From NCBI GenBank assembly GCA_902801625.1, contig CADCJI010000010.1, forward strand, positions 22,419 through 86,418: a stretch of DNA of 64,000 nt, written 5' to 3'. How positions within the stretch are numbered: position 1 is the first letter of the stretch; every line of letters starts with the position of its first letter. Of the stretch, positions 93 to 5,695 are shown piece after piece. This stretch comes from an uncultured Bacteroidia bacterium. Its GTDB lineage: Bacteria; Bacteroidota; Bacteroidia; Bacteroidales; F082. The notes under the pieces were generated by a model that was not told the DNA's origin, searched no databases, and was given only the letters and a program-made list of their open reading frames with translations. The position numbers and the translations under genes are program-made.

Positions 93-121
93 GGATTTTT
101 GATTTTTTAAAGTATTTTATT

Positions 122-170
122 GCCTGTGCATTAATTTGGCACAGGCTCTATTTTTCTTTGCAGCGGAAAA
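122..170 (+). promoter_or_regulatory. Module-separating stem-loop/promoter element, copy E1
   Basis: A perfect 8-bp inverted repeat GCCTGTGC-N9-GCACAGGC (122-129 and 139-146) is followed by a T-rich tract and TTTCTTTGCAGCGG, with TTTG at 157-160. The box differs by one base from the Bacteroidetes -7 consensus TAnnTTTG. Related copies lie at 2192, 4016 and 5076. The stem-loop plus T tract could end the upstream gene while the TTTG box starts the gene at 221. Confidence 0.65.
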
Positions 171-220
171 CGGTCGAATTGACAAATATAACAAACTATA
201 AACATCATTAAATCAAAAAT

Positions 221-892
221 ATGGAAAACAACAGATATGCAAGCATCGGTAAAGGCTCAATTGTCGAAGAAGGCGTCTTCGTAAGATTTCCCGAGCTCGT
301 TCCAGCTTCTTTGGACAATTATTGGAACAGCAAGAAGCATAAAAAGCTGTTGATAGTTGGAGAAAGCAACTACTTTGACGATGATGTCGACAGCGTGTTT
401 AAGGACCCAAAAGCGTGGTATTCAGGAGCAGACAAACAACATTTGATACCAGAAGGAAAGAAGAAAGATGTAAGCAACTACAAAGGGTATAAGACTTTTG
501 ATAGGTTGTGTAAATCCATGAATGAAGTGTTGAACGAAACACTTTGTGAGCACGTCTATGAGGAGGCCATGTTCTATAATTATTTTCTGCGTCCGGCCAC
601 GGTGAGGAAAAACAATAAATCATTCAAAAAAGACTGCACCCAATTAGACCGTGATGTGGCTGGCAGCGCATTATGTGGAATTATCGACCTTGACCGTCCT
701 GATGTAGTTATATTTGTCAGTAAATATGCACACTTGGAATTTAGGAAGTACATGGAATCGAATGGATTGTCATATAATATCCCGATTGATTTCGTCAATC
801 ATCCTGCACATCCTGCCTCATGGCATCACAGAAATGGAAACGGGAAACAGAAGTTCGAAAGACTATTGAGGGAATACTGGATGGTAAAATAA
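221..892 (+). CDS. Predicted uracil-DNA-glycosylase-like fold protein
   Basis: This 223-residue protein has no signal peptide. Its order of short motifs recalls the uracil-DNA glycosylase superfamily: LLIVGESNYF near residue 43 (motif I region, compare GEAPG), NYFLRP near 120, RPDVVIFVS near 160, and a His-Pro-rich NHPAHPASWHH near 194 (compare the terminal HPS motif). The match is by eye and the catalytic Asp/Asn of true glycosylases is not clear, so activity is unproven. It is the first gene of the module driven by element E1, and a protein with the same motif order is encoded at 1370-2164. The start at 221 is the first ATG after the E1 promoter. Confidence 0.6.
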   Translation: MENNRYASIGKGSIVEEGVFVRFPELVPASLDNYWNSKKHKKLLIVGESNYFDDDVDSVFKDPKAWYSGADKQHLIPEGKKKDVSNYKGYKTFDRLCKSMNEVLNETLCEHVYEEAMFYNYFLRPATVRKNNKSFKKDCTQLDRDVAGSALCGIIDLDRPDVVIFVSKYAHLEFRKYMESNGLSYNIPIDFVNHPAHPASWHHRNGNGKQKFERLLREYWMVK

Positions 893-932
893 TCACATTT
901 TTATCAACCCCTGTATGTTTCATAGAAATGTT

Positions 933-940
933 TACCTTTG
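933..940 (+). promoter_or_regulatory. -7 promoter box (TACCTTTG)
   Basis: An exact TAnnTTTG match lies 57 bases before ATG 997. It supports starting the zinc-knuckle protein at 997 rather than at an upstream in-frame codon that would overlap the preceding gene. Confidence 0.55.
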
Positions 941-996
941 CTGCAAATATCATCTTGGCATTGTGCCTACAAGTGCAAAACCCGAACTGGCCGCCC

Positions 997-1341
997 ATGA
1001 AAAACTATCAATGCAAGAAATGTGGCATTCTGATTAAAACAGAGCGACAGCCCAATGCGTTCAATTGTCGGGTTGGAAACTACCACGATTGGAACGACCT
1101 CGGCGAAGTCGGCTGCGAGAACTACCGATGCAAGAAATGCGGTCTTCTCGTCGAAAGCAAGAGCACCCCATCTTCTTTTGGATGCACTGCTGGAGGCTAC
1201 CACAATTGGCAAGATTTATGTCCGATAGGCACCGATGTCTATCAATGCAAGAAGTGTGGCATTCTGTTGTATGCCTCAAAGTCACCCAATGAATTTGACT
1301 GCCCTTCGGGAGGGTATCATCAATGGAATAAGATGAACTAA
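997..1341 (+). CDS. Small protein of three tandem zinc-knuckle repeats
   Basis: The 114-residue protein is almost entirely three copies of a 39-residue unit, each with C-x2-C-x14-C-x5-H: C6/C9/C24/H30, C45/C48/C63/H69 and C84/C87/C102/H108. Each unit also carries YxCKKCG and a YHxW end. Each could hold one structural zinc, suggesting nucleic-acid or protein binding; no catalytic residues are apparent. I chose ATG 997 because the open frame extends upstream to 820 inside the previous gene, but the -7 box at 933-940 and the first repeat both point to 997. It lies between two UDG-like genes. Confidence 0.7.
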   Translation: MKNYQCKKCGILIKTERQPNAFNCRVGNYHDWNDLGEVGCENYRCKKCGLLVESKSTPSSFGCTAGGYHNWQDLCPIGTDVYQCKKCGILLYASKSPNEFDCPSGGYHQWNKMN

Positions 1342-1369: not shown

Positions 1370-2164
1370 ATGATGAACAGCAATATCAATTATGAACTTG
1401 AGTTTCTCTTCGGCAGATGGTATGAACGAATGGAGAAAACGAATGGAGAAAAAACTTGCTTTACAAAAGACGGGATTTTGTATAAAAACGAGTTGTCAGA
1501 TGATGAAGTGTTAAAAAAATGGAATGATTCATCAAAACGAGTTATGTTTTTGCTGAAAGACCAGAATCAAGAAGGCAAAGAAAAATGGGATGAAGACATT
1601 CGCTATTGGCTCAAAGATGCCGAGTGGGACAAACTTAAAGCCAAAGAAACAAAAGAAAAGAACAGAAATCTTGACAACAAGTTTTTCAAAAATCTTGCCT
1701 ATCTCTTTTGGGGGTTATCTAAAGCAACAGCAGATGATGACAATGCTTGGTGGTATAATGAGGTGACAATGCATATCGAAGAAGTCAAGGCGTTTTTCAA
1801 CAGCCAACCTTTTGCATTGGTCGAGTGCAAAAAACAACCTGGAGGTGGTTACCTTGACAATAAAGTGCTAGTAGAACATCTAAACAATTATAAAGACTTA
1901 TTGGAACGAGAAATTGAGATTATGAGACCCAATATGATAGTTTGCACAAATCATCATATATATGGTACAGTCCTTAATATGAACCTATTTCCAAAAAAGG
2001 AAGTCGTCAGCGTAAAGGAACATCAACCAGTCAGTTTTCACATACCAACAGGAACTCTGATTTTCTGTTCTTATCATCCCAGCGACAGAAAAAGTCCAAA
2101 TGAAATATATGAAGGCGTAATGGACCACTACAGAGCTTTCTTGAAAAGCATTTACAATCTTTAA
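1370..2164 (+). CDS. Second predicted uracil-DNA-glycosylase-like fold protein
   Basis: This 264-residue, lysine-rich cytoplasmic protein lies 28 bases after the zinc-knuckle gene with no promoter between, so the two are probably co-transcribed. It shares motif order with the protein at 221: RVMFLLKDQN near residue 57, RPNMIVCTNHH near 188, and FCSYHPSDRK near 230. That layout fits the UDG-like superfamily, but I see no convincing catalytic Asp/Asn. Its codons are visibly more A/T-rich than the core genes downstream, consistent with acquisition. ATG 1373 is an equally possible start. Confidence 0.6.
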   Translation: MMNSNINYELEFLFGRWYERMEKTNGEKTCFTKDGILYKNELSDDEVLKKWNDSSKRVMFLLKDQNQEGKEKWDEDIRYWLKDAEWDKLKAKETKEKNRNLDNKFFKNLAYLFWGLSKATADDDNAWWYNEVTMHIEEVKAFFNSQPFALVECKKQPGGGYLDNKVLVEHLNNYKDLLEREIEIMRPNMIVCTNHHIYGTVLNMNLFPKKEVVSVKEHQPVSFHIPTGTLIFCSYHPSDRKSPNEIYEGVMDHYRAFLKSIYNL

Positions 2165-2191
2165 TTGCAGGAATTGATCAATTTTTCCTAA

Positions 2192-2240
2192 GCCTGTGCT
2201 TCAATTCGGCACAGGCTTTCTTTTTCTTTGCAGCGTTAAA
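2192..2240 (+). promoter_or_regulatory. Module-separating stem-loop/promoter element, copy E2
   Basis: The arms GCCTGTGC (2192-2199) and GCACAGGC (2209-2216) pair perfectly around a 9-base loop whose sequence differs from E1. A T-rich run and TTTCTTTGCAGCG follow, with TTTG at 2227-2230, 22 bases before ATG 2253. It sits 27 bases after the stop of the previous module. Confidence 0.65.
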
Positions 2241-2252
2241 TCGTAACGCATT

Positions 2253-2921
2253 ATGACCATACAAGAAATTTACAACTCACAGCCCGTCAGGAAGGTGGAA
2301 TACATGATTCTCGACTGTCAGCGGCAGAGCGAAAAAGGCATGTGGGGCATGGAAACAGGAAGAGTAGCCATCCAAAACCTTTTGAGCATCAGGAAAACCA
2401 TCTTGAACGAAATGTTCGTGATGGACGACAATTATTTGCAACTGCTCAAGGACTTCAACGAGGCCATGAAGCAACAGATGATAGAGATGCGTAGACGCAC
2501 AATAGCACTTTATGAGTCGGTGGCCAAAGCAGAATTGCCAGGAACCATCGAAGTGGAGGGCAAATGCCATTTCGGCTACGACTATCCTCCTTTGCATCCC
2601 ATCCAAGACGAACGCGCCCAACGGATGTGGGACATACTAAATGGAACAATCGATAACTTTATTCCTTTGTACCATAACGGATTCGGACAATTCCGAATTG
2701 ACACCTATCATTCCTCTGTCCCAACAATTGAATCCGAACATCAAATGCTATATTTGAGTGAAGAAACGGACAATTGGAACGAGGGTTTAGACGGAAAACT
2801 GACAAAAGACATGCATCTTATATTCGCATTCCACGACCTTTTCGAGCACATGGAATTCGCCATTTTCGACCTCCTTTGGGTGCGCGACTTTAATATTGAA
2901 CTGAATGTTGAAATCTCATAA
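2253..2921 (+). CDS. Unidentified protein, first gene of the FtsZ-like operon
   Basis: A 222-residue soluble protein that I cannot assign. Residues ~40-90 look like long amphipathic helices (KDFNEAMKQQMIEMRRRT), followed by a Pro-rich patch (YDYPPLHPIQ, ~110-119) and an acidic/aromatic C-terminal half. There is no signal peptide or transmembrane segment. The start at ATG 2253 lies 22 bases after the E2 promoter box. It is followed after 13 bases by the FtsZ-like GTPase and then a third small gene, which suggests a three-protein functional unit. Confidence 0.65.
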   Translation: MTIQEIYNSQPVRKVEYMILDCQRQSEKGMWGMETGRVAIQNLLSIRKTILNEMFVMDDNYLQLLKDFNEAMKQQMIEMRRRTIALYESVAKAELPGTIEVEGKCHFGYDYPPLHPIQDERAQRMWDILNGTIDNFIPLYHNGFGQFRIDTYHSSVPTIESEHQMLYLSEETDNWNEGLDGKLTKDMHLIFAFHDLFEHMEFAIFDLLWVRDFNIELNVEIS

Positions 2922-2934
2922 CAATACAACGACT

Positions 2935-3597
2935 ATGAACAAAAAAGCAACCTCAACAACAAAGTCAACCGTTAAAGTAATCGGCATTGGCTGTGGCGGC
3001 AACAATATCGTCAACCATATAAGCCAAAGCAATTTGGGAGGTTTCTCCTTTGTGGCCTGCGACATGGATGCCAAGGTGCTTGAGAAATCAGCAGCCGCCA
3101 CAACCTTGCAACTTGGCACAGACGGACTTGGAAGCGGCAACAGCCCTGAGAAAGCACGCATCACAGCTGAAGAAAACACAGATGCAATAAAGAAACTATT
3201 CGATGACAAACCTTCAATGACCTTTGTCGTCACTTGTCTTGGAGGAGGATGCGGCACGGGTGCGGCTCCCGTAATCGCCTGTGAGTCAAAAAAGATGGGC
3301 ATCACGACCGTTGTCCTTGCCACTTTGCCATTCGAGTTGGAAGGCGAACGCAGATTCTCGCAAGCCTCGGAAGGAATTCAAAACTTGGCAAGAAACACGG
3401 ATGCCCTCTTCCTGCTCAACAACCAGTATATCAAAGAACAATACTGCGACTTGCCCATAAACCAAGCCTTCGCAAAGGCCGATGGCCTGTTGGCGGAAAT
3501 AGCCAAAAGCCTAATCCGAGCCATAATGGAGCCACAACAAGCGACAAAGAAAACCTCAAGAATAAAGGAGTTTTTCAAAAGACTGAAATGCAAATAA
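2935..3597 (+). CDS. Truncated FtsZ/tubulin-like GTPase (GTP-binding domain only)
   Basis: This 220-residue protein keeps the FtsZ nucleotide-binding half: T1 loop GIGCGGNN (17-24), T3-like GLGSGNSPEKAR (64-75), the tubulin signature GGGCGTG (103-109), T5-like PFELEGERRFSQASEGI and a helix-7 segment INQAFAKADGLL. It stops where FtsZ continues into the C-terminal domain, so the T7 synergy loop (NxDxxD) needed for GTP hydrolysis at a filament interface is missing. It should bind GTP but probably cannot self-activate like FtsZ. ATG 2935 was preferred over 2905, which would overlap the upstream gene. It is not the cell-division FtsZ, which is about 100-250 residues longer. Confidence 0.82.
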   Translation: MNKKATSTTKSTVKVIGIGCGGNNIVNHISQSNLGGFSFVACDMDAKVLEKSAAATTLQLGTDGLGSGNSPEKARITAEENTDAIKKLFDDKPSMTFVVTCLGGGCGTGAAPVIACESKKMGITTVVLATLPFELEGERRFSQASEGIQNLARNTDALFLLNNQYIKEQYCDLPINQAFAKADGLLAEIAKSLIRAIMEPQQATKKTSRIKEFFKRLKCK

Positions 3598-3602
3598 AAG
3601 CG

Positions 3603-4028
3603 ATGGCATCGAAAACATTCAACACTGCAACTATCGCCCGTCTGCTCAGTCACGAGGATGAGCATGGCATGGGACGCATTTTCATGTACGCCTTCGTCAA
3701 TGAGGTAATACGTCAGAAGAGGCCGTTCTCATTCGATTGTGAATCCGCTCAAGTAAGCCCCAACTTGATGATTGTTGACAACCAAGGAAGAAGCATCGCC
3801 GTTGAGCAAAGGCGCAATCGGCTTAGTTTAACCCTCAACCACCAACGAAGTGAAACTTCCGCACGCATCGAATACAAAGGCGAAGCCTATCGCCAAGTCA
3901 TTCTTGCTTGGCTTATAGCTTGCATCCAGTACACTTCGTTGCAGCCTGAACTTCGCAACAAGCTGACAAGATATGCCAAATCCATTCAAAGAAGAACTTG
4001 GTTTACAAAAGTTTTGCCTGTGCATTAA
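3603..4028 (+). CDS. Unidentified small protein, third gene of the FtsZ-like operon
   Basis: A 141-residue basic protein with no recognised domain. It has a predicted beta-rich middle (LMIVDNQGRSIAVEQRR) and a helical C-terminus. ATG 3603 is 5 bases past the FtsZ-like stop; ATG 3588 would overlap that gene by 10 bases and is the alternative. Its last residues, LPVH, and its stop codon are encoded by the left arm and loop of element E3, so the element has become part of the gene end. It probably works with the two upstream proteins. Confidence 0.6.
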   Translation: MASKTFNTATIARLLSHEDEHGMGRIFMYAFVNEVIRQKRPFSFDCESAQVSPNLMIVDNQGRSIAVEQRRNRLSLTLNHQRSETSARIEYKGEAYRQVILAWLIACIQYTSLQPELRNKLTRYAKSIQRRTWFTKVLPVH

Positions 4029-4064
4029 TTTGGCACAATCTTTTTATTATCTTTGCCGCATAAA
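4016..4064 (+). promoter_or_regulatory. Module-separating stem-loop/promoter element, copy E3
   Basis: The left arm GCCTGTGC (4016-4023) faces a degraded right arm GCACAATC (4033-4040), so only the inner TGTGC/GCACA pairs remain. The -7 box is a perfect TATCTTTG (4048-4055). The next ATG is at 4074. The element overlaps the 3' end of the preceding gene. Confidence 0.65.
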
Positions 4065-4073
4065 ACCAACCTC

Positions 4074-5042: not shown

Positions 5043-5075
5043 TTTATTGAGCATAATAACTGCATAATTTTTCAA

Positions 5076-5124
5076 GCATGTGCTGTGATTTGGCACAAGC
5101 TTTTGTTTTCTTTGCAGCGGAAAA
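5076..5124 (+). promoter_or_regulatory. Module-separating stem-loop/promoter element, copy E4
   Basis: Arms GCATGTGC (5076-5083) and GCACAAGC (5093-5100) keep the TGTGC/GCACA core with one outer mismatch. A T-rich run and TTTCTTTGCAGCGGAAAAC follow (TTTG 5111-5114), 26 bases before ATG 5141. The tail is nearly identical to that of E1. Confidence 0.65.
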
Positions 5125-5140
5125 CTAAAACGCTAAAGTT

Positions 5141-5695
5141 ATGTATAATGCACCCTATCACGTCCCCTTAAAGGAATATGAAGGAATGATGGCCAACCGA
5201 GAGTATTGGGACGACCTCGGAGCCGAATGGAATTGGAGTTCGATGGAGAAAAAGTTGGTGCGTCTTGCCGGTTTCGTACAACAAGGCGGGAGTTTGAAGA
5301 AAGTCCTTGCCCGCTACACCAAAGACCGAGACGAAGAATACACCAATCGCATCCAATTTTGTGTCTTGGAGTATATCTTGAAACTCATGGTCGGCAATCG
5401 GATAAAGCCATACGAAAAGGTTCCTTTGGTTGACCGCATCAAGCGGCTGAACAAGGACGAACTTGTGGAACTGCTCACGAAGGAATTGAAACGGGATGTG
5501 GTGCCAAGTAGCGAGATGGACAAAAACCACAAATTCCACGAGCATTGGAGACTGCTTTCAGATGACGAATGGTTGAGTGATGAAATTCTCGACAAGATTG
5601 AGTACCGGCATTGGCACAAACACCCCGAAGAGCCTTTCAGCCAATATTTGAGACGGTCGGAGTTTTGGTGGGATTATCGGCATTTTTTATGGTGA
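5141..5695 (+). CDS. Unidentified cytoplasmic protein
   Basis: A 184-residue charged protein rich in Trp and His near its C-terminus (EYRHWHKHPEEPF, then RRSEFWWDYRHFLW at the end). No family is recognised. There is no signal peptide or membrane segment. It is the only gene of the module started by E4; the next gene has its own promoter. The many C-terminal aromatics and histidines may form a binding surface, but this is speculative. Confidence 0.6.
   Translation: MYNAPYHVPLKEYEGMMANREYWDDLGAEWNWSSMEKKLVRLAGFVQQGGSLKKVLARYTKDRDEEYTNRIQFCVLEYILKLMVGNRIKPYEKVPLVDRIKRLNKDELVELLTKELKRDVVPSSEMDKNHKFHEHWRLLSDDEWLSDEILDKIEYRHWHKHPEEPFSQYLRRSEFWWDYRHFLW

What the first reader, a model, noticed from the sequence alone, without database searches (positions are those of the whole stretch)
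2253..4028. Three-gene operon with an FtsZ-like GTPase lacking its C-terminal half
The middle gene keeps all FtsZ nucleotide-contact loops (GGGCGTG is intact) but ends right after helix 7, so the T7 catalytic loop and C-terminal domain are gone. Two unrecognised proteins flank it within a few bases. A GTP-binding FtsZ fragment could cap or poison FtsZ/tubulin filaments, act as a GTP sensor, or form a new polymer with its neighbours. Its place in a defence-like island suggests a conflict role such as halting division.
Basis: partly seen in the sequence, partly recalled or inferred. Interest (0 to 1): 0.75.

Follow-up and report, generated by a model that had tools for sequence, protein, structure and literature searches.

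The report
Half-length FtsZ in a defence-like island
A gut Bacteroidales bacterium carries, besides its normal cell-division protein FtsZ, a second one that exists only as the GTP-binding half; the half-protein belongs to a selected family found in swappable gene cassettes of defence-like islands, and may act on cell division, which is not yet tested.

Summary
In detail: three tightly packed genes (2253-2921, 2935-3597, 3588-4028), the middle one an FtsZ GTP-binding domain ending after helix H7. It is no broken gene: 30 such halves were collected, and the 17 put in a tree form one clade apart from 23 full-length FtsZs (100/100); dN/dS is 0.16-0.26 for the three window families. The genome has a separate full-length FtsZ. 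The half keeps the loop glycines and guanine-contact positions, lacks the T7 catalytic loop, and carries family changes (G20C, N43D, G103C, T108C, Q47 to K/S/other). "GGGCGTG intact" is wrong in detail: full-length FtsZ reads GGGTGTG. The trio is not a fixed unit: gene 3 follows the half-FtsZ in 15 of 15 same-genus loci, gene 1 precedes it in 9 of 15. The cassette lies between copies of a hairpin-promoter repeat whose best matches in this genome precede accessory genes. New: in one relative the missing FtsZ half is the next, overlapping gene, and a plasmid carries that half with a gene-1 relative and a ZapA-like gene. Best guess: a non-polymerising FtsZ-derived effector that binds division machinery. 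The family is well supported; the mechanism is inferred. No structure prediction could be run.

The parts
2253..2921 (+). ORF1, 222 aa, family without a named domain (conserved DNWNEGLD...FHDLFEHMEFAIFDLLWVRDF)
   Evidence: dN/dS 0.160; optional: directly upstream in 9 of 15 same-genus loci
2935..3597 (+). ORF2, half-length FtsZ (220 aa; frame open from ATG 2905): FtsZ GTP-binding domain through helix H7 plus a short basic tail
   Evidence: dN/dS 0.264
3538..3594 (+). basic C-terminal tail of ORF2 (QATKKTSRIKEFFKRLKCK); membrane or partner-binding helix is inference only
   Evidence: tail motif in the last 22 residues of 25 of 30 halves; hydrophobic moment beats shuffles at p<0.05 in only 3 of 28 tails, not in the window's (p 0.15)
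3588..4028 (+). ORF3, 146 aa (alternative start 3603), shrunken PDDEXK_4-like domain; the D and ExK positions are not conserved in its family
   Evidence: PDC-S26 2e-11, PDDEXK_4 0.0085 below cut-off, family alignments; 15 of 15 same-genus loci
2185..2241 (+). hairpin + CTTTGC repeat upstream of the cassette (terminator/promoter or operator-like)
4009..4065 (+). second copy of the repeat, closing the cassette; holds the ORF3 stop codon; its hairpin is weak
115..171 (+). copy of the repeat before the 221-2164 gene group
5069..5125 (+). copy of the repeat before the gene at 5141

Best explanation
ORF2 is a dedicated, stand-alone FtsZ nucleotide-binding domain, probably a non-polymerising relative of the host's own FtsZ, carried as a swappable cassette in a defence-like island. 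SHOWN by sequence: the glycine skeleton of the loops and the N165, F182 and position-186 contacts are kept; the NxDxxD T7 motif and the C-terminal domain are absent in all 30 members collected; Q47 on the nucleotide face is replaced in all 30; the three window families are under purifying selection; the cassette sits behind a repeat shared with other accessory cassettes. INFERRED: it binds GTP but cannot hydrolyse it or assemble alone. It is made when the island promoter fires and acts stoichiometrically by binding division machinery, most likely the exposed T7/synergy face of the host FtsZ, so that Z-ring assembly stops. The target's T7 loop could then supply the missing catalytic residue and make the block self-limiting. 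ORF3 is its constant partner or adaptor in this genus and ORF1 an optional one.
For: Family, clade and selection. Residues. Separate full-length FtsZ in the same genome. FtsZ-linked parts in sister cassettes: a free-standing FtsZ C-terminal half overlapping the half-FtsZ gene by 14 nt in L101/L105 and also present on plasmid pE2-28 (the reverse search finds true FtsZs within positions 20-139 of 140), and a ZapA-like gene (PF05164, 6.2e-06) 4 nt upstream of an ORF1 relative on that plasmid. Precedent: rare FtsZ/tubulin-superfamily effectors in MoxR-vWA conflict systems (PMC7159879, section 17 read); FtsZ inhibitors SulA, MciZ and T7 Gp0.4 are described as acting at the synergy-loop surface (PMC13423816, section 8 read), the face that a free N-terminal half would meet.
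Against: Q47 is replaced in 30 of 30 (K in the window), and E. coli FtsZ Q47K is described as monomeric (passages of PMC13423816), so ordinary docking of the nucleotide face may be lost. The loop changes G20C, G103C and T108C could alter nucleotide binding. There is no experiment, no structure model and no complex model. The direct neighbours differ between genera, and in the DNA held most half-FtsZ loci outside the genus show no ORF1 relative within 5 kb (10 of 15) and no C-terminal-half gene (13 of 15); some of these loci are short or cut by a contig end.
Confidence: 0.4

Rival explanations
1. A GTP-dependent switch or sensor that no longer touches FtsZ filaments: the nucleotide state (or the cysteines at the phosphate loops) sets its contact with its cassette partner (ORF3 here, other proteins elsewhere), and the partner is the effector.
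For: Both FtsZ polymer faces are altered or absent (T7 side missing, Q47 replaced); the GTP contacts are kept; the immediate partners are swapped between genera.
Against: ORF3 looks catalytically degenerate, so no obvious effector activity; FtsZ-linked genes recur in sister cassettes.
Confidence: 0.3
2. N-terminal subunit of a split FtsZ: it reassembles in trans with a free-standing C-terminal half into a two-piece FtsZ that forms its own filament or cap.
For: In L101/L105 the next gene, overlapping by 14 nt, encodes an FtsZ C-terminal half beginning near the H7/T7 junction; the same family is on pE2-28, where the T7 segment reads LDKSDL (alignment to T7 by eye).
Against: In 20 genomes that carry the half-FtsZ, profile A5 found no free-standing C-terminal half: 17 match in frames of 428-741 aa (the size of whole FtsZ), G274 gives a chance match in a 252-aa antisense frame, G383 and G185 give none, and the window's genome has one further weak, stop-interrupted match at E 0.41. 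Only one of the non-genus lineages has the pair.
Confidence: 0.15
3. Bait or decoy: a dedicated FtsZ mimic that captures phage FtsZ inhibitors, with a partner reading out the capture.
For: FtsZ is part of a phage-sensing complex in CapRel-Ebc (PMC13423816, abstract and section 8 read).
Against: The inhibitors treated there act at the synergy loop and C-terminal region, which are missing here; the half-FtsZ is far from the host FtsZ (42% identity).
Confidence: 0.1
4. Decaying gene or assembly artefact.
For: Missing half; the genome is a 62-contig assembly, 84% complete.
Against: 30 members end in the same region after H7, dN/dS 0.264, one clade.
Confidence: 0.02

Closest known systems
FtsZ cell-division GTPase (PF00091 + C-terminal domain; NCBIfam TIGR00065)
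   Same: N-terminal GTP-binding domain through helix H7; loop glycines and guanine contacts kept
   Different: no T7 catalytic motif, no C-terminal domain, no linker; family changes G20C, N43D, G103C, T108C, Q47 replaced; coexists with a full-length FtsZ in the window's genome
Cell-division-related effectors of MoxR-vWA ternary conflict systems (PMC7159879)
   Same: FtsZ/tubulin-superfamily protein in conflict-type islands; in L110 (same contig as L047, by length) the half-FtsZ directly follows a MoxR (PF20030 bpMoxR 1.1e-53), vWA (PF05762 5e-06) and YgjP-like peptidase gene group
   Different: in the window the half-FtsZ cassette holds no MoxR or vWA gene; the paper calls FtsZ/tubulin cases rare, and the passages and section read mention no half-length family
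FtsZ inhibitors SulA, MciZ and T7 Gp0.4
   Same: predicted outcome (block of FtsZ assembly at the synergy-loop face); works-like only
   Different: those are not FtsZ domains (recalled, and section 8 of PMC13423816 for Gp0.4, 51 aa); here the agent would be an FtsZ domain itself
PDDEXK_4 / PADLOC PDC-S26 nucleases (for ORF3)
   Same: PDC-S26 match 2e-11, two stretches; longer PDDEXK_4/PDC-S26 genes are neighbours in some genomes
   Different: 146 aa instead of about 400; the D and ExK positions are not conserved

Membership tests
FtsZ (functional cell-division protein) | FtsZ/tubulin nucleotide-binding domain | tested here: met
   PF00091 101.4 bits, cut-off 33; PDB FtsZ chains to 2.9e-39
FtsZ (functional cell-division protein) | T7 loop motif NxDxxD with catalytic aspartates (E. 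coli D209, D212) | tested here: not met
   NxDxxD in the last 60 residues of 0 of 30 halves, present in 23 of 23 full-length FtsZs; by alignment D212 in 0 of 30, D209 and N207 in 1 of 30 (L106)
FtsZ (functional cell-division protein) | C-terminal domain; model score above the curated cut-off | tested here: not met
   TIGR00065 172.2 bits, cut-off 295.2, model positions 12-211 of 353
FtsZ (functional cell-division protein) | GTP binding, GTPase activity and polymerisation | not testable with these tools
   needs purified protein
MoxR-vWA ternary conflict system | MoxR ATPase and vWA gene in the same operon | tested here: inconclusive
   not in the window cassette; adjacent in L110; the window's genome has a MoxR (PF20030 1.6e-52), vWA (PF05762 4.9e-05, below cut-off) and YgjP-like group on contig C11 behind the same repeat
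PDDEXK_4 nuclease (ORF3) | Pfam gathering score | tested here: not met
   16.5 bits, cut-off 22.3; PDC-S26 2e-11
PDDEXK_4 nuclease (ORF3) | catalytic D and ExK residues | tested here: inconclusive
   by alignment the positions vary across 15 members, but the profile alignment behind the assignment is weak (probability 5%, E 0.0077)
Anti-phage defence system | phage protection | not testable with these tools
   context only: UzuA and PDC-S23 matches in neighbours

The most novel reading that the evidence does not exclude
A two-piece tubulin-superfamily system has evolved in Bacteroidales defence-like islands: FtsZ was divided at the H7/T7 junction into a GTP-binding half and a T7/C-terminal half that are carried, alone or together, in swappable cassettes with ZapA-like and other partners, and used as immune effectors that stop cell division or sense attack on it.
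Probability: 0.22. Interest if true: 0.85.

Novelty: new variant of a known kind. Interest (0 to 1): 0.62.

Why it matters
FtsZ needs both halves for GTP hydrolysis and assembly. A selected protein family that keeps only the GTP-binding half, and relatives in which the other half is a separate gene, give natural material for the question of what each FtsZ half does alone. If it acts on the Z-ring, it would be a division-blocking immune effector made from FtsZ itself.

Tried and rejected
Pseudogene or frameshift: rejected.

ORF3 as a diverged FtsZ C-terminal half: rejected. The FtsZ C-terminal-domain profile finds no match (E 5) in the window or the same-genus cassettes, and ORF3 matches PDC-S26 instead. 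ORF3 against full PDDEXK_4 neighbours by profile gives only probability 5%, E 0.0077, so that link rests on the PADLOC match.

C-terminal amphipathic membrane helix: the tail motif is frequent (25 of 30), but the hydrophobic moment beats shuffles at p<0.05 in only 3 of 28 distinct tails, one of which lacks the motif; kept as inference. Resemblance of the tail to the FtsZ C-terminal peptide or to the MinD/FtsA membrane helix was noted from recall and not tested.

ORF1 by Pfam, NCBIfam, PHROGs, PADLOC and PDB profile: nothing convincing (best PADLOC AbiQ 0.028, best PDB 0.22). ORF1 in plasmids: 1 record of 72,556; in phages: none. ORF3 in plasmids: none. ORF2 also has a weak PADLOC type II restriction match (1.7e-4), taken as noise.

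Half-FtsZ in the plasmid and phage records: 108 and 19 records match, all under 60% identity; the rows listed that bear a name are ftsZ genes and I did not look at the unlisted 88 plasmid rows, so short members there are not excluded.

Free-standing C-terminal half: none in viral contigs. In 393 genomes of the order at E 1e-9, 10 genomes match: nine in frames of 432-512 aa, one in a 252-aa frame that is an FtsZ cut by the contig end.

One search aligned a wrong-strand translation as the host FtsZ; that row is discarded, and the true one is.

Co-occurrence in 295 genomes: half-FtsZ in 5, ORF1 in 6, both in 3, hypergeometric P 4.6e-5. The five are those visible in the listing, which was cut; two of the three sharing genomes are from one genus. 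Weak support only.

ORF1 is not tied to FtsZ alone: on viral contig L131 an ORF1 relative is followed by a 330-aa gene whose relative also follows ORF1 in L115, with no FtsZ gene seen in the 12.7 kb held.

Literature: no half-length or split FtsZ family was seen in the search listings (one library of open papers; not proof that it is unpublished). The one 'split FtsZ' paper (PMC12747378, passages) splits the protein only for modelling.

Full report
Observation. Three ORFs lie head to tail on the + strand: ORF1 2253-2921, ORF2 (frame from 2905; better start 2935) to 3597, ORF3 3588-4028. ORF2 matches PF00091 at 101.4 bits, and the NCBIfam ftsZ model over positions 12-211 of 353 at 172.2 bits against a cut-off of 295.2. 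The genome (3.58 Mb, 62 contigs, 84% complete) has two PF00091 matches: this one and a full-length FtsZ on contig C16, whose frame carries the motif QPAYLRR near its end.

It is a family. A profile of five halves finds a half-length frame in 15 of 173 genomes of the window's family, all one genus, and in 4 of 31 genomes of a second family. A pattern scan of genome contigs (one genome for each of 84,980 species, by the tool's description) gave 62 pattern matches, of which 28 encode relatives. All 28 are half-length frames (211-246 aa); their titles name Bacteroidales groups or, in some, only Bacteroidia or Bacteroidetes, and many name ruminant samples. One more lies on a viral contig (1 of 86 pattern matches), where its frame starts at the contig edge (206 aa held). 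With the window this makes the 30 halves used below. The pattern scan itself asked for cysteine-containing stretches, so the cysteine counts are partly ascertained; the 20 members of alignment A2, found by protein or profile search, all carry C103 and C108 too. In a phylum-wide sample 4 of 395 genomes passed the profile threshold, but only the window's own frame is half-length; the other three are frames of 437-448 aa.

One clade, under selection. In a tree of 17 halves, 23 full-length FtsZs and E. coli (13 of 30 halves, near-duplicates, left out) each group is one side of a branch with 100/100 support; E. coli, L115 and L108 are long branches and the root position is not shown. dN/dS (sum ratio; pairs with dS 0.05-2 and over 80 codons): ORF2 0.264 (104 of 105 pairs), ORF1 0.160 (35 of 36), ORF3 0.231 (105 of 105).

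Residues (E. coli numbering, 30 halves against 23 full-length FtsZs). Kept in 30 of 30: G19, G21, G22, N24, G69, G105-G107, G109, T110, G111, P134, E138, N165; in 29: D45, G71, F182; in 28 the D at position 186 (N in E. coli, D in 23 of 23 full-length). Changed: G20 to C (29 of 30), N43 to D (28), Q47 to K 13, S 10, N 2, A 2, M, T and D 1 each, G103 to C (30), T108 to C (29). The NxDxxD motif is in 23 of 23 full-length FtsZs and in the last 60 residues of 0 of 30 halves; by alignment D212 is in none, N207 and D209 in one (L106). Which residues touch nucleotide is recalled from FtsZ structures, not computed here. In PMC13423816 (abstract, section 8 and passages read) E. coli FtsZ Q47K and L178E are used as monomeric mutants; the window protein has K at 47.

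Neighbours. In the 15 same-genus loci ORF3 follows ORF2 directly in 15 of 15; ORF1 precedes it directly in 9 of 15, is absent there in 5, and in one (L085) only 264 nt lie upstream, with no ORF1 end recognisable. In the five copies without ORF1 the half-FtsZ begins MTIQ, like ORF1 itself, as if ORF1 had been gained or lost cleanly behind one start site. In the DNA held around the 15 half-FtsZ loci outside the genus no ORF3 was found at E 1e-4; an ORF1 relative lies within 5 kb in 5 (L101 and L105 nearly identical, L107, L113, L115). Direct partners otherwise differ: a 340-370 aa family in L107, L112 and (in two pieces) L106, an IetA-like AAA protein in L110. So the half-FtsZ is the constant and its partners are swapped.

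ORF3. PDC-S26 at 2e-11 in two stretches, Pfam PDDEXK_4 below cut-off. Family alignments show the expected D and ExK positions varying. In L077 its end runs into a WYL-gene remnant and in L079 into a RhuM/Fic-gene remnant, scars of cassette loss.

The missing half turns up next door in relatives. In L101 and L105 the gene overlapping the end of the half-FtsZ by 14 nt encodes a 140-aa protein; a profile of FtsZ C-terminal domains finds it at 1e-06, and finds a relative on Prevotella plasmid pE2-28 at 1.6e-07, in a search over all stop-to-stop frames of at least 40 aa in the loci held at that time; apart from true FtsZ frames nothing else reached E 1. In reverse, a profile of the three such proteins finds FtsZs at up to 1.8e-11 within positions 20-139 of 140. 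On pE2-28 the gene stands near an ORF1 relative, which follows a ZapA-like gene. Shorter, weaker relatives lie on Segatella plasmids in islands that also hold WYL genes. In 20 genomes that carry the half-FtsZ no free-standing C-terminal half was found: 17 match in frames of 428-741 aa, one match is chance, two genomes have none, and the window's genome adds one weak interrupted match at E 0.41.

Promoter repeat. A 57-nt repeat with a hairpin (TGTGC-N9-GCACA) and CTTTGC occurs four times in the window, including both ends of the trio (expected by chance for its core 0.29 against 4 found). It folds as a clear hairpin in three of four copies, weakly in the copy at 4009. In the whole genome the 6 matches with at most 1 mismatch all lie upstream of accessory genes: four in the window, from which the pattern was drawn, one before a relative of the 5141 gene followed by a relative of the UzuA gene, one before a MoxR-vWA-peptidase group (PF20030 1.6e-52); one of the 6 matches with 2 mismatches precedes a relative of the 340-370 aa family, and the five others were not looked at; the reversed control gave 1. 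A second pattern gave 8 matches and 0 in the control: the five perfect ones are among those named, one with 2 mismatches precedes another accessory-type gene, two with 3 were not looked at. In 11 of 14 same-genus relatives a copy lies directly before the first cassette gene, with the start codon 22 positions after the end of CTTTGC in 10 of them. Whether it is terminator plus promoter, an operator for the island WYL regulator, or both, is open.

Context and precedent. Neighbours match PADLOC UzuA (7.4e-70) and PDC-S23 (5.5e-142). PMC7159879 (passages and section 17 read) reports rare FtsZ/tubulin-superfamily effectors in MoxR-vWA conflict systems. PMC13423816 shows FtsZ inside an immune sensing complex and places Gp0.4 (with SulA and MciZ as similar cases) on the synergy-loop surface. 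PMC12583498 (passages read) shows that an FtsZ can bind membranes directly through an amphipathic helix, relevant to the basic tail (25 of 30; mostly not significant by hydrophobic moment).

Judgement. The half-FtsZ family is well established by these calls. That it binds GTP is likely. That it blocks division by binding FtsZ is the best single guess but is weakened by the Q47 change and by the lack of any structure or experiment; a switch with swapped partners is close behind.

Noticed in passing
window 115-171, 2185-2241, 4009-4065, 5069-5125; G000 C23 and C11: A hairpin-promoter repeat whose best matches in the genome stand before accessory cassettes: a candidate shared operator/terminator of a defence-like regulon.
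   Followed up: partly
L105 10626-11048, L101 4368-4790, L043 11495-11923: Free-standing FtsZ C-terminal halves, one lineage with it overlapping a half-FtsZ gene, one on a Prevotella plasmid.
   Followed up: partly
L043 8721-8996: ZapA-like gene (PF05164) 4 nt before an ORF1 relative on plasmid pE2-28.
   Followed up: partly
L077 8634-9137, L079 9238-9798: ORF3 ends fused to remnants of the WYL gene and the RhuM/Fic gene: scars of cassette deletion.
   Followed up: no
window 820-1341: Small protein with three copies of a cysteine-rich module (117-nt direct repeat), zinc-ribbon-like.
   Followed up: no
window 1370-2164: Gene with a weak uracil-DNA-glycosylase-superfamily match (2.3e-4, below cut-off); relatives lie near the half-FtsZ in other genera too (L101, L105, L113, L114).
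   Followed up: no
L101 4808-5553: The ORF1 relative is split into two frames compared with the nearly identical L105 copy; either a real break or a sequence error. Left as it is.
   Followed up: no
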